The translations under genes were made by a program, and so were the position numbers. A DNA stretch of 64,000 nucleotides, from the NCBI GenBank assembly GCA_009777725.1, contig WRLG01000001.1, positions 1-64,000 of the forward strand, in the 5' to 3' direction. Source of the DNA: Oscillospiraceae bacterium (lineage in GTDB: Bacteria > Bacillota > Clostridia > Oscillospirales > Ruminococcaceae). Of the stretch, positions 10,096 to 21,445 are shown piece after piece (the first letter of the stretch is position 1; each line of letters begins with the position of its first letter). The notes under the pieces were generated by a model, which ran no database searches, was not told the DNA's origin, and saw nothing but the letters and a program-made list of their open reading frames with translations.

Positions 10096-12597
10096 TTAAA
10101 TTAGTGCTTCCTCTATATCAAGCTGCTCTGTTATCGGGTTTAAAAATTCCTGCCAGATATATTTTATAGGCACAAAGTTATTGTAATCTTCATAATCATG
10201 CTTAACAGCACCCCTAAAAACTCCGATAACTTCATTTGTTTCGTCTGATAAAACAGGACAACCGGAATTGCCTCTTTTTCCTTCCATCGACACATCTACC
10301 ATATCAATTCCGTTTCTTTTTTGAAGTCCCGATACCGCTCCATAAAAAGTGCTATGGTTCAGGTCTTCAATACTGTCACTCATTATGTCGCCAAATGGAT
10401 AGCCGATACAATATATTTTATCACCATGATTGTATGATAAATTGGCTGTTGCGAGTTTAACAGCAGGAAAATTCACTCCCTTCAATTTTAACAAAGCGAT
10501 GTCTATAGTTTTATCATACTTAACAATAACCGCCTCGTGCCACGAGTTTAAACTCCCGACCCTGTCCGGAATCCGTAATCTTGCTTCGATATTTTGTTGT
10601 CCTTCAACAACGTGATAGGCTGTTATTGCATATCCATCTTCTGTAATAACGAAGCCACTGCCGGAACCCGATTCGGTTTGAATAAAAATTAACGCATCAG
10701 AAAATCTTATCAATAACTTTTCGTTAAATTTTATTGGTACAAACTTAACTGGCTTTTCTTGTTTATCCTTTATATTTAATATATTATCATAATTTTTTGG
10801 AACATCCTCGCCTGTAAGTAGGTTACGCAATTCTTCCGGGGTGTTTTTCGCATTTACAAATTGAGCTTTAAGTCTTTGTCTCATATTCGTTTTACACTTT
10901 TTTATGTAATTTCTTACATCTCTTCCGTTACCAAAAGACGGTAAAGGGTTTACTGTCCAGCTTTCAAATATTTTTTGTGACAGTTTTTCAAACTCATCGG
11001 TAAGTCTAATATTCTGTGCTTTTGCCATAAACCTAAGTATTTGCACAAGTTCGTCTGAAGTATAATTTTCAAATTCTATGATATTATCTTCAGTCACCCT
11101 TGAAAACAACCCGACATTTGCATCAATAAAATTTTTCATGGGTTCTGTATAACCGGCGAATATCACACAAATTCGTGAAAGGTTGTTTTCCATGAGCGGA
11201 ACTAAAGTATCGATAACCTCTTGACCATAATCAACTTGACCATCCTTTCTTGGATTGATTGAGTATGCTTCATCAATAAAAAGAACACCATCTAAAGCTT
11301 CGTTAAATTTCGCTTGTGTTTTAGCTTTTGAATGACCTGCATATTCTCCTGTTAATTGAAGTGCACTTTCTATTTCAACAATATGTCCCTTTTTTAGAAC
11401 GCCAAGATTATGTAAAATACTGCCTAAAAGTCTTGCTACCGTAGTTTTTCCTGTCCCCGGATTTCCATTAAAGACATAATGACCGGGGTCGACTGTTTTT
11501 CCGTCTTCGCATTCAAATTCCATGTTATCTTTAATCTCTTCAATTTTTGATTTTACTTTTGCTAATCCAATTAATTCGTTAAGTTGGAGCTGTTCATCCA
11601 ATCTTGTCTCCGGCGGTAAAGCAGGAAGTAATCTTGAATGATATTCCACAATTTTTGCTCGACTTTTCCCATTGAAATTAAACCTTTTTTCACAACTCTC
11701 GTTATTTAAGACTTCGCCTCTTTCAGACATAGTACCTACCTCCGCAAGAAAATATTTTAATGATAATTTTTCATCATTAAAATGCTTTGTTAAATTTTTA
11801 CAAACATCATCAAATTCTCTAAAATCCACTTTTAGACCATTTGACAAAAGCCTTTTATAGTGTATTGCGTTTCTAATCTCGCCTGCGGATGGTGTGTTGA
11901 GCTCTATTAAAGTGGCAGATTTTGAATCTTTTTGCACCATGTTTGAGAAAAACTTCCAATAAGGTGTGCAGTCACTCTCATATGTTTTAAGAACCTCTTC
12001 AAGAGGTTTTTCAGGGAAAACGAACACGACGATGTTTTTATTATTAGATGACAATCCTTTAAAAGAGTTAAGACCATCACAAATATCTTCGGGAGATGTT
12101 CTTCCGAAAGACGAAATAAAATCGTCGGCATTCGTAAATATTACTGCCGTTTTAATTTTATCGTCCTCCATGCAACTTTTAATTCTTGAAAAAGCCATAG
12201 TATCATCAATGGTTTTAATGCTTAATCGTCGATTTGCTTCTTCTTGATTTTTTGGTGGTTGAGACTTTTCGGGAGCAGAAGAATCGGTGCTGTTTAATCT
12301 GCCTTTAAGTGGCGCACCTTTAAGCTTTATTTTTGTTTGAGGATATTTCACTTGTTCAAAGTGTTCATAATTCAGATTAGCTGTTGACATATACGAAACA
12401 TCGTCAAAAAAATAGAATTTTTTGCTTCTGTTATAAAATATAATGCGGCTATATTTACAATCACTCAGATGGTCATACAGCATTTCATCTAAATTTTTGC
12501 GGATAAGGTCTTCACCGCAAAATTCATCCTGTGTTTTACCTGCAACAAAGAAAAACCGTTTCGTTATATTGATGTTTTGATTGAAATAAGATTCCAT
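10096..12597 (-). CDS. CbxX/CfxQ-type AAA+ ATPase fused to C-terminal trypsin-like serine protease
   Basis: Walker A GNPGTGKTTVARLLG, Walker B GVLFIDEAYSIN; C-terminal GSGSGFVITEDGYAITAYHVVEG, DIALLKL, GKRGNSGCPVL (protease His/Asp/Ser). Confidence 0.9.
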   Translation of the reverse strand: MESYFNQNINITKRFFFVAGKTQDEFCGEDLIRKNLDEMLYDHLSDCKYSRIIFYNRSKKFYFFDDVSYMSTANLNYEHFEQVKYPQTKIKLKGAPLKGRLNSTDSSAPEKSQPPKNQEEANRRLSIKTIDDTMAFSRIKSCMEDDKIKTAVIFTNADDFISSFGRTSPEDICDGLNSFKGLSSNNKNIVVFVFPEKPLEEVLKTYESDCTPYWKFFSNMVQKDSKSATLIELNTPSAGEIRNAIHYKRLLSNGLKVDFREFDDVCKNLTKHFNDEKLSLKYFLAEVGTMSERGEVLNNESCEKRFNFNGKSRAKIVEYHSRLLPALPPETRLDEQLQLNELIGLAKVKSKIEEIKDNMEFECEDGKTVDPGHYVFNGNPGTGKTTVARLLGSILHNLGVLKKGHIVEIESALQLTGEYAGHSKAKTQAKFNEALDGVLFIDEAYSINPRKDGQVDYGQEVIDTLVPLMENNLSRICVIFAGYTEPMKNFIDANVGLFSRVTEDNIIEFENYTSDELVQILRFMAKAQNIRLTDEFEKLSQKIFESWTVNPLPSFGNGRDVRNYIKKCKTNMRQRLKAQFVNAKNTPEELRNLLTGEDVPKNYDNILNIKDKQEKPVKFVPIKFNEKLLIRFSDALIFIQTESGSGSGFVITEDGYAITAYHVVEGQQNIEARLRIPDRVGSLNSWHEAVIVKYDKTIDIALLKLKGVNFPAVKLATANLSYNHGDKIYCIGYPFGDIMSDSIEDLNHSTFYGAVSGLQKRNGIDMVDVSMEGKRGNSGCPVLSDETNEVIGVFRGAVKHDYEDYNNFVPIKYIWQEFLNPITEQLDIEEALI

Positions 12598-12664
12598 GCT
12601 ATTAAACCCTCATTCTAAATAAATTTGTACCGTTCGCTTCCACGTCGAATTAAAAGAATAAAAA

Positions 12665-19478: not shown

Positions 19479-19498
19479 GGTCTTTCTCCTTTTAAGTA

Positions 19499-21445
19499 TT
19501 ACAGTTTCAGCCATAAAGCGGAGTGAACGCCGCCGTCATCACAGTAGACATCGTCACTGTTAAAACTAACAATTCTTAATTTATCGCTTGCATCCAAACT
19601 ATTGTAAAACACTCCGTTAAGGTGCTTTCGCAATTCACAATTTGTCCAATTATTAGTTGAAATGTCAAACCTATGTTTTTCTATAATATCTTTAGTTATG
19701 AGAAGAACTTCTCCGTTATGCACCCCACGCACGCACCAATCATAACCGCCGAATTTGATTATACTGTTGATTTTGGGGGTTAGGGTTTGTGCGGTGAAAG
19801 CAGTTATGCCGGAATCTTCAACAAAATTTTTAAGGTATTTTTGTTTTTCGTTGCCATGCCTATCTCTTGCGTAAATAGTAGGTATCATATTTCTGTCAAC
19901 GGAAAAGCTTATTTCATACATATTTTCCTTGTCCTCAAGATTTGGGAACAACTCGCTTGCGGTCCCTATGCTTCCCTCAATACGACCTAAACCATCAGAA
20001 CGCCGTGGATTCATATACACCGGTATTTTTGCCGCCCCAAGGTTCATAGAAAACTTATACTTTTCGGTCCATTGCGGAACAGAAACATCTTTGATATTAA
20101 CTCCATGCTTTATCACCGGAACATCAGAAGGTTTTTGAGAATGATTTACACGTGCAATAAAACCTATTTCATGGTCACAAGTGTGAACAACATTATCATT
20201 TTTTGCTATGTAAAATGCTCCTTTGGCTATTGCATATGACCTGTTATACTTAGTAATAGTTTCCGGAAGACGATAGTCTGCATCAGTCATTGACACGTCA
20301 AAAAGAAATTTTCTGACAGTTTGCTCAACCGGACAAAAGTTTGAAAACCCGCCCACAAGCAATACTTTGAATTTTTCTTGCGATTCAATATCCACATTAT
20401 GTTTATGGAAATACTTAACTATTTCTTCCAAAGATTTTTCAAGATGAGGTTTATTCACTTCATTAAAGCATATAATCAAGTCTTCGCAATATACATCAAT
20501 ACTTTCTCCGCTGTTCATGTCGTACACAATCGAAAACAATTCCCTGCCTTTTCCTTCTACGAGGCGAGGACCATTTGTACCCTTAAAATATTTTTTAAAG
20601 CTTTCCGTTATCTTTAAGTCTTGTATTTTTTCTTCCTCAAATTTTTGACAGAGTTCAGTGTATTTGAAAGTTCTTTCTTGGCTATCGGACTTGTATTTTT
20701 TTATGTCAAGACCATGTTTCTTAATAAGGTGTTCAACCACAGCTTCGTCAAACGCAACACCTGCGCAACCATTTGTTTTAGTATACTCGCCAAAACCACA
20801 ACATTCGAGAATTTGTATTTCTTCTCTTTTATTTTCTTTCGGCTCAACCTTGCATAAAGTTGTATCTAATGTTCCTCCGCCAAAATCAACAACGAGAATA
20901 AAACCCTCATATGGCTCGCATTTAGGATTTTCTTTATTCGATTTATATACCTCACAGAAATAAGCGGCGGCAGCGACGGGTTCGCTTTCAATAGTAATTA
21001 CGTTACCATAGCCTAATTCGTCATATATCGATTTTATGTTCTCGCGGACAGCTAAATTGCTGTTCTCTCGAGACCATGCGGCAGGTATAGTCATGACTAT
21101 CTTATCAAAATTTCCGGTATTCTTTTGTTTTTTATAAGAATCAAGGAGTTTTTCTATAAAATCTTTTGCAACCTGATGCGGCGTTCTCCCACTTTCGTGA
21201 ATGGGCATATTAAAATCTTTACCCAGCTTTAACTTAAAATTGGAATATGTATCGTAATTCTTTTTGAAAATTGTGCTTTTGGCAACTTCGCCAATAAAAA
21301 CTGAATCGTTATCATACGCAACGATTGTTGGGATAAAATCAGATTTACCGGGAATAAGTTCAAAAGTGTCAATCTTATCTGTCTCCGAGTCATGATAACA
21401 CAAAATGCTGTTCGTTGTACCAAAATCTAACCCAATTACCATCAT
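19499..21445 (-). CDS. DnaK/Hsp70-like ATPase with a shortened DUF6273-like C-terminus
   Basis: MMVIGLDFGTTNSILCYH, VVDFGGGTLDTTLC, VLLVGGFSNFCPVEQTVRKF; C-terminus INSIIKFGGYDWCVRGVHNGEVLLITKDIIEKHRF...NWTNCELRKHLNGVFYNS...DDVYCDDGGVHSALWLKL. ATG 21445 preceded by gaggcagg SD. Confidence 0.9.
   Translation of the reverse strand: MMVIGLDFGTTNSILCYHDSETDKIDTFELIPGKSDFIPTIVAYDNDSVFIGEVAKSTIFKKNYDTYSNFKLKLGKDFNMPIHESGRTPHQVAKDFIEKLLDSYKKQKNTGNFDKIVMTIPAAWSRENSNLAVRENIKSIYDELGYGNVITIESEPVAAAAYFCEVYKSNKENPKCEPYEGFILVVDFGGGTLDTTLCKVEPKENKREEIQILECCGFGEYTKTNGCAGVAFDEAVVEHLIKKHGLDIKKYKSDSQERTFKYTELCQKFEEEKIQDLKITESFKKYFKGTNGPRLVEGKGRELFSIVYDMNSGESIDVYCEDLIICFNEVNKPHLEKSLEEIVKYFHKHNVDIESQEKFKVLLVGGFSNFCPVEQTVRKFLFDVSMTDADYRLPETITKYNRSYAIAKGAFYIAKNDNVVHTCDHEIGFIARVNHSQKPSDVPVIKHGVNIKDVSVPQWTEKYKFSMNLGAAKIPVYMNPRRSDGLGRIEGSIGTASELFPNLEDKENMYEISFSVDRNMIPTIYARDRHGNEKQKYLKNFVEDSGITAFTAQTLTPKINSIIKFGGYDWCVRGVHNGEVLLITKDIIEKHRFDISTNNWTNCELRKHLNGVFYNSLDASDKLRIVSFNSDDVYCDDGGVHSALWLKL

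What the first reader, a model, noticed from the sequence alone, without database searches (positions are those of the whole stretch)
10096..21445. Nine-gene operon: Hsp70, DGR-like hypervariable zinc-ribbon/DUF6273 proteins, radical SAM, coiled coils and an AAA+-trypsin fusion
Seen: nine co-directional genes with tight spacing (4-nt ATGA overlap rSAM/paralog B; 7-8 nt gaps elsewhere; the longest gap is about 80 nt), one promoter upstream and a hairpin downstream, all reading frames intact although the surroundings are full of pseudogenes. Established: C-type-lectin-fold DUF6273/FGE-like proteins are known DGR targets, and DGR proteins have been reported near NTPase and trypsin-like conflict modules. 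Inference: a diversified recognition family (three zinc-ribbon/coiled-coil sensors) feeding an Hsp70 chaperone and an AAA+-gated serine protease effector, i.e. a candidate immune or surveillance system. I do not know this exact gene set as a described system.
Basis: partly seen in the sequence, partly recalled or inferred. Interest (0 to 1): 0.95.

Follow-up and report, generated by a model that had tools for sequence, protein, structure and literature searches.

The report
Hypermutated sensors wired to chaperone-protease operon
A gut-type Clostridia genome carries an apparently undescribed gene cluster in which interchangeable recognition proteins, three of them bearing the mark of a targeted-mutation retroelement, sit beside a chaperone, a radical-SAM enzyme and an ATPase-protease, so it may be an adaptable intracellular alarm or defence machine.

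Summary
The operon is real: nine intact co-directional genes on the minus strand, 21445-10096. The neighbourhood holds. A core of Hsp70, coiled coil, NrdG-like radical SAM, coiled coil and a pseudo-AAA/AAA protein (with or without trypsin) recurs in 17 loci from Clostridia, cyanobacteria and Treponema-type bacteria. A search anchored on a coiled coil found the same operon. Beside the core sit zinc-ribbon/coiled-coil adaptors whose C-terminal recognition domain is swapped between lineages: DUF6273, RCC1 or WD40 propeller, FGE, DUF5050. Here three adaptors end in DUF6273 variable regions with a clear diversity-generating-retroelement (DGR) signature: 223 of 232 codons are NNY, against 49% elsewhere. 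The operon has no reverse transcriptase. The genome's only RT match, with Avd, lies on contig C14 among five more DUF6273 targets and a TerY-P-like vWA/kinase/PP2C set, so diversification would be in trans. One adaptor is 91% identical to a C14 target outside the variable region but 67% inside it. No template repeat was found in the assembly. I found no description of this gene set; MoxR-vWA ternary systems and CoCoNuTs fail on defining features. Immunity is the best-supported function but is inference. The Hsp70-fused DUF6273 is a decayed remnant.

The parts
19499..21445 (-). Divergent Hsp70 (about 540 aa core) fused to an internally deleted DUF6273 remnant
   Evidence: HSP70 and partial DUF6273; relatives of about 540 aa lack the tail
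18525..19478 (-). Zinc-ribbon/coiled-coil adaptor C with DUF6273 (DGR target)
   Evidence: PF19789; zinc-ribbon module alignment
18555..18644 (-). Variable region of adaptor C
   Evidence: Flanking motifs; NNY codons
17400..18443 (-). Coiled-coil protein CC1
   Evidence: Homologues between Hsp70 and rSAM in L032, L112, L113, L114, L199
16802..17392 (-). NrdG/PflA-like radical SAM protein, CxxxCxxC at C33/C37/C40
   Evidence: Fer4_12 3e-26; three Cys invariant in 16 aligned members
15330..16805 (-). Zinc-ribbon/coiled-coil adaptor B with DUF6273 and a C-terminal repeat extension
   Evidence: PF19789
15933..16022 (-). Variable region of adaptor B
15057..15296 (-). Small 16-residue-repeat protein (weak, below-cutoff Bflower_2 match); not part of the conserved core
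13654..14973 (-). Core coiled-coil protein CC2 with C-terminal alpha/beta-looking region
   Evidence: Homologues in most core loci; profile A2 led to the full core in G750
12665..13645 (-). Zinc-ribbon/coiled-coil adaptor A with DUF6273
   Evidence: PF19789; 91% nt identity to C14 target t1 outside the VR
12695..12784 (-). Variable region of adaptor A
10096..12597 (-). Pseudo-AAA (res. 1-335), CbbX/EccA-type AAA (336-610), trypsin-like protease (611-833)
   Evidence: Pfam/NCBIfam; fold match of the N-domain to AAA+; catalytic residues
21565..21593 (-). Candidate promoter TTGCAA-17-TATAAT with TG extension
   Evidence: consensus match only

Best explanation
This is a sporadically distributed, cytosolic surveillance system with a constant machine and variable sensors. 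Shown by sequence: (1) the machine is Hsp70, two coiled-coil proteins, a radical-SAM enzyme, and a pseudo-AAA/AAA protein that here carries a trypsin-like protease; (2) zinc-ribbon/coiled-coil adaptors share an N-terminal module and carry interchangeable recognition domains; (3) in this genome three such domains are DUF6273 with DGR-type variable regions, and the only DGR-type RT and Avd found are encoded on another contig. Inferred: the zinc-ribbon/coiled-coil half docks the adaptors on the coiled-coil/Hsp70/AAA complex. Binding of a foreign (most likely phage or mobile-element) protein by a variable domain recruits the target or releases the Hsp70/AAA brake. The AAA ring then remodels the bound protein and feeds or activates the trypsin domain, which destroys the target or cell proteins. 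The radical-SAM protein licenses or matures one component by protein modification (substrate unknown).
For: Co-travel: Hsp70, rSAM and AAA within one locus in 17 of the retrieved loci (L032, L033, L035, L036, L039, L040, L042, L043, L044, L050, L067, L112, L113, L114, L124, L128, L199). A CC2-only search led to G750, which has the full core (L199). In two separate protein searches 20 contig lengths coincide between Hsp70 and AAA relatives, against a mean of 0.4 in a jitter control. Swappable sensors: RCC1, WD40, FGE, DUF5050 or DUF6273 behind the same zinc-ribbon module. DGR: NNY 223/232 in VRs versus 1324/2712 elsewhere. A versus t1 differs at 27/81 VR sites versus 50/537 outside, and VR changes shift to codon positions 1 and 2. 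Exactly eight sites share the VR 5' flank. Avd + RT on C14, motif LGNQASQ. Catalytic residues intact. No transmembrane or signal segment by hydropathy. Patchy distribution: 3/401 genomes of the order. A nearby type I restriction remnant and a SIR2-like gene fit a defence-rich region.
Against: No experiment and no phage data. No template repeat in the assembly, so current diversification is unproven. C1 and C14 could in principle come from different organisms (bin contamination 2.6%). Most relatives' sensors are propellers, and none of the six non-cyanobacterial genomes tested (including G750) has a DGR RT match, so hypermutation looks like a local upgrade rather than a defining feature. Trypsin is absent from most of the AAA proteins in the fetched loci. 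PADLOC finds no known system. Hsp70 + AAA + protease could equally be protein quality control.
Confidence: 0.55

Rival explanations
1. Regulated protein quality control: the adaptors are substrate receptors for an Hsp70/AAA/trypsin disposal machine for damaged or misassembled host proteins, with propellers or DUF6273 giving substrate choice.
For: Hsp70, AAA and protease are classic quality-control parts; L039 has a GrpE-domain protein upstream and L032/L039 carry extra Hsp70 copies; no nuclease or other classical toxin in the operon.
Against: Rare, patchy distribution, sensor domain swapping and DGR-type hypervariability are not expected of housekeeping proteostasis.
Confidence: 0.2
2. Cell-cell recognition or surface adaptation: DUF6273 variable domains serve as adhesins or kin-recognition ligands, as in phage receptor-binding DUF6273 proteins.
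For: DUF6273 occurs in DGR-mutated phage receptor-binding proteins (PMC10743442, PMC11792537); phage DUF6273 proteins are the best fold matches in the viral library.
Against: No signal peptide or transmembrane segment in any of the nine proteins by hydropathy; the adaptors start with a zinc ribbon and travel with cytosolic Hsp70/AAA.
Confidence: 0.1
3. Fossil: the variable regions were diversified in the past and the DGR is now dead because its template is lost; the operon uses fixed DUF6273 sensors. (This concerns present activity and is compatible with the surveillance role.)
For: No template repeat found with three whole-genome searches; decayed DUF6273 copies on Hsp70 and near C1:232.9 kb.
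Against: RT and Avd frames are intact; A and t1 are 91% identical outside but 67% inside the VR, so rewriting postdates their split. An assembly gap could hide the repeat.
Confidence: 0.3

Closest known systems
MoxR-vWA ternary conflict systems (VMAP, iSTAND, FtsH; Kaur et al. 2020, PMC7159879; Dore et al. 2024, PMC10907252)
   Same: NTPase chaperone plus hypervariable DGR-diversified C-type-lectin-like sensor plus trypsin-like protease; patchy; cyanobacteria among hosts
   Different: AAA is CbbX/SpoVK/EccA type, not MoxR; no vWA, VMAP or GTPase in the operon; Hsp70, radical SAM and two conserved coiled coils instead; sensor on a zinc-ribbon adaptor
GTPase-centric systems with Hsp70/tubulin (Kaur et al. 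2020, PMC7159879)
   Same: Hsp70 in a predicted conflict operon
   Different: No TRAFAC GTPase or tubulin among the nine proteins
CoCoNuT type IV restriction systems (PMC11090510)
   Same: Hsp70-like proteins, coiled coils, zinc ribbons; some carry SpoVK-family AAA and TerY-P
   Different: No McrB GTPase, McrC, helicase or HEPN RNase in the operon; one related locus (L040) has a DUF2357 protein next door only
DGR target proteins with DUF6273 (phage tentaclins PMC10743442; Faecalibacterium prophages PMC11792537)
   Same: DUF6273 with a DGR variable region
   Different: There a phage receptor-binding protein; here a predicted cytosolic zinc-ribbon adaptor in a cellular operon, with the RT in trans
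TerY-P-like set with DGR targets on contig C14 of the same genome
   Same: Same DUF6273 variable domain family, one copy 91% identical outside the VR
   Different: Different N-terminal adaptor (about 95 aa) and a vWA/kinase/PP2C partner set; carries the RT and Avd

Membership tests
DGR target gene | Variable region whose codons derive from AAY (excess NNY, changes at codon positions 1-2) | tested here: met
   223/232 NNY vs 49% elsewhere, p about 2e-53; position shift
DGR target gene | Conserved 3' end next to the VR (IMH-like) | tested here: met
   GGCGTTCGYCCCGCTTTGTGGCTG exact in A and B, with 3 mismatches in C, and present in C14 copies
DGR target gene | DGR-type RT and Avd in the genome | tested here: met
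   RVT_1 with LGNQASQ and bAvd (E 3e-9, just under the Pfam cut-off) on C14
DGR target gene | Template repeat | tested here: not met
   Only eight VR sites, no ninth copy; could be missing from the 49-contig assembly
DGR target gene | C-type-lectin fold of the variable domain | tested here: inconclusive
   AF2 pLDDT 75; Foldseek finds mainly other DUF6273 domains; published DALI comparison says C-type lectin (PMC10743442)
MoxR-vWA ternary system | MoxR-type AAA+ with partner vWA protein | tested here: not met
   AAA matches CbbX/SpoVK/EccA and AAA_lid_6; no VWA in the nine proteins
GTPase-centric Hsp70 system | TRAFAC GTPase | tested here: not met
   No GTPase family hit
CoCoNuT | McrB GTPase and McrC homologue | tested here: not met
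   No hit
Known PADLOC defence system | Match to a curated defence protein over its length | tested here: not met
   Only partial trypsin-domain, AAA and coiled-coil matches
Canonical DnaK | DnaK equivalog score | tested here: not met
   52 bits vs cut-off 648
NrdG glycyl-radical activase | CxxxCxxC cluster motif | tested here: met
   Invariant in 16 aligned members
NrdG glycyl-radical activase | Equivalog score and partner glycyl-radical enzyme | tested here: not met
   86 bits vs cut-off 126 and no such gene in the operon
HtrA/DegP protease | Catalytic triad | tested here: met
   H662, D699, S778
HtrA/DegP protease | PDZ domain and export signal | tested here: not met
   No PDZ; no signal or TM segment by hydropathy

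The most novel reading that the evidence does not exclude
A previously undescribed class of prokaryotic immune machine: an Hsp70/radical-SAM/pseudo-AAA-AAA core that accepts any recognition domain on a zinc-ribbon adaptor. In this lineage one DGR acts in trans on two different systems (this operon and a TerY-P-like system), giving the cell a shared, continually rewritten antigen-receptor repertoire.
Probability: 0.3. Interest if true: 0.95.

Novelty: new variant of a known kind. Interest (0 to 1): 0.8.

Why it matters
DGR-diversified sensors have been proposed as bacterial antigen receptors, mostly in multicellular cyanobacteria and purple sulfur bacteria and mostly with MoxR-vWA or STAND partners. 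Here the same logic appears with an entirely different machine (Hsp70, radical SAM, CbbX-type AAA, trypsin) in Clostridia, and the machine is conserved across phyla with swappable sensors. If confirmed it gives a compact, testable system for how a variable receptor is coupled to a chaperone-protease effector, and a role for a radical-SAM enzyme in such signalling.

Tried and rejected
Searching relatives with the coiled coils alone: CC2 and CC1 as single sequences found nothing useful in 61 and 251 genomes; an alignment was needed. Template repeat: consensus DNA in the own genome and in 300 family genomes, and two flank patterns, found variable regions and DUF6273 copies only; the 22-nt exact hit at C1:232.9 kb is the 3' end of a deleted DUF6273 copy. 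PDB fold search of adaptor A had one significant hit, an IgA peptidase (9qa6) whose N-terminal domain is itself DUF6273, so it does not test the lectin fold. PDB sequence search with CC2 gave only coiled-coil noise. MoxR-vWA, GTPase and CoCoNuT membership were considered and rejected on missing core parts. The small repeat protein was considered as an rSAM substrate; no homologue was found in the other loci, so it was not pursued.
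Full report
The window holds a nine-gene operon read on the minus strand from 21445 to 10096. In transcription order the products are Hsp70 with a DUF6273 tail, zinc-ribbon adaptor C, coiled coil CC1, a radical-SAM protein, adaptor B, a small repeat protein, coiled coil CC2, adaptor A, and an AAA-trypsin protein. 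The frames are intact, the gaps are about 80 nt or less, and an extended -10 promoter lies upstream. The surroundings are disturbed. To the left a type I restriction system is broken (HsdR in two frames); to the right are an integrase fragment, a transposase-like gene and a SIR2-like gene.

The gene set is not an accident of this genome. Starting from the Hsp70, which forms a subfamily of about 540 aa, I fetched 160 loci and searched their reading frames with each window protein. In 17 loci, counting L199 found later, Hsp70, the NrdG-like radical SAM and the AAA protein lie together, usually with CC2 and often with a protein in the place of CC1. The order Hsp70, CC1, rSAM, CC2, AAA is kept in L032, L112, L113, L114 and L199. 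Hosts include Eubacteriales, Catenibacillus scindens (Lachnospiraceae), Ruminococcus, Trichodesmium, Calothrix and Tychonema; the Hsp70 (P0074) and AAA (P0205) on a 108,501-base contig, the length of L113's contig, bear the name Treponema sp.. A control that did not start from Hsp70, a profile of CC2 alone, matched 3 of 401 genomes of the order (this one included). One of the others (G750) holds the whole core plus two zinc-ribbon proteins. A second control: among the best protein relatives of Hsp70 and of the AAA protein, 20 contig lengths coincide, against 0.4 in a jitter control. The rarity (3 of 401 in the order; 2 of 401 in the phylum, one weak) and the phylogenetic spread suggest horizontal transfer or repeated loss.

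The AAA protein has a constant N-terminal domain followed by one to four CbbX/EccA-type AAA domains. A trypsin domain ends it in the window, L032, L039 and L128, and in many database relatives. The N-terminal domain lacks Walker motifs, yet its AlphaFold model (pLDDT 77) matches AAA+ ATPases, best E 7e-4; I read it as a degenerate AAA domain. The window protein has Walker A, Walker B, an arginine finger and a complete His-Asp-Ser triad. The radical-SAM protein keeps CxxxCxxC in all 16 aligned members, but no glycyl-radical enzyme is present, so it probably modifies something else.

Next to the core lie proteins that begin with the same zinc ribbon and a short conserved stretch (in the window CP.C...CP.C.F.D...SDEEY.YW) and end in different domains: DUF6273 (window, L114), RCC1 propellers (L032, L033, L035), WD40 (Calothrix L043, L128), FGE (Tychonema L044) and DUF5050 (L113). 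Replacement of one domain within a constant context is a mark that Kaur et al. give for conflict systems (PMC7159879). It implies that the zinc-ribbon half plugs into the machine and the C-terminal half does the recognising. That is inference from architecture.

In this genome the recognising domain is DUF6273, and its C-terminal variable region carries the signature of a diversity-generating retroelement. In the three window copies and five copies elsewhere, 223 of 232 codons end in C or T, against 49% in the rest of the same genes. Copy A and a copy on contig C14 are 91% identical in the DUF6273 domain outside the variable region and 67% within it; the changes shift from codon position 3 outside to positions 1 and 2 inside. 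This is what rewriting of AAY codons gives. The flanks are fixed: exactly eight sites in the genome match the 5' flank pattern. The genome has one RT match, on C14, with the DGR-type motif LGNQASQ and a neighbouring Avd-like protein. It sits among five DUF6273 targets, two vWA proteins, a kinase and a PP2C phosphatase. Diversification of the window genes would therefore be in trans, which Dore et al. inferred for some Thiohalocapsa loci (PMC10907252). No template repeat was found, so activity today is open. The bin has 2.6% contamination; the 91% identity and shared flanks argue that both contigs belong together.

The DUF6273 on Hsp70 is internally deleted and absent from 19 aligned relatives; it looks like a decayed fourth copy. 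The C-type-lectin fold of DUF6273 comes from published models (PMC10743442); my model matched mainly other DUF6273 proteins, from phages and an IgA peptidase. Hypermutation is not a property of the whole system: none of the six non-cyanobacterial genomes tested, including G750, has a DGR RT match, while Calothrix has close matches and the two other cyanobacterial genomes only weak ones.

Literature searches found no description of this gene set; the library holds open-licence papers only. The nearest described systems are MoxR-vWA ternary systems and CoCoNuTs; both fail on defining parts. The operon works like a DGR-diversified conflict system but is not a member of those families. My working mechanism, about 55%, is an intracellular sensor array coupled through coiled coils and Hsp70 to an AAA-protease; quality control, surface recognition and a dead DGR are the rivals.

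Noticed in passing
G000:C14:about 15.5-29.7 kb (L011): DGR locus: bAvd, RT, five DUF6273 targets of which most share a 95-aa N-terminal adaptor (also fused to a vWA-like domain at L011:18679-19677), plus vWA, kinase, PP2C and a transglutaminase-like protein: a TerY-P-like set with DGR targets.
   Followed up: partly
G000:C1:about 232.9 kb (L023:1500-1680): Remnant of another DUF6273 gene; the middle including the variable region is deleted but the 3' end is kept, like the tail on the window's Hsp70.
   Followed up: partly
window 199-3625 and 6019-6918: Broken type I restriction system (HsdS, HsdR split over two overlapping frames) and a separate HSDR_N-domain protein.
   Followed up: partly
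window 35211-37498: SIR2-like protein followed by a TPR-like frame next to a transposase-like gene; resembles SIR2 proteins of defence systems.
   Followed up: no
window 8180-9481: Lipoprotein-like protein with many internalin-type leucine-rich repeats just downstream of the operon.
   Followed up: no
L032:3635-8566, L039:4012-9992: Arrays of extra Hsp70-like genes upstream of the core; L039 also has a GrpE-domain protein, suggesting a dedicated Hsp70 cycle.
   Followed up: no
L127:3426-11644: A more distant Hsp70 followed by vWA, PP2C and kinase genes: Hsp70 next to a TerY-P-like set.
   Followed up: no
window 15057-15296: Five similar 16-residue repeats (RDIHGNxxHRIDGN) in a small protein inside the operon; function unknown.
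   Followed up: no
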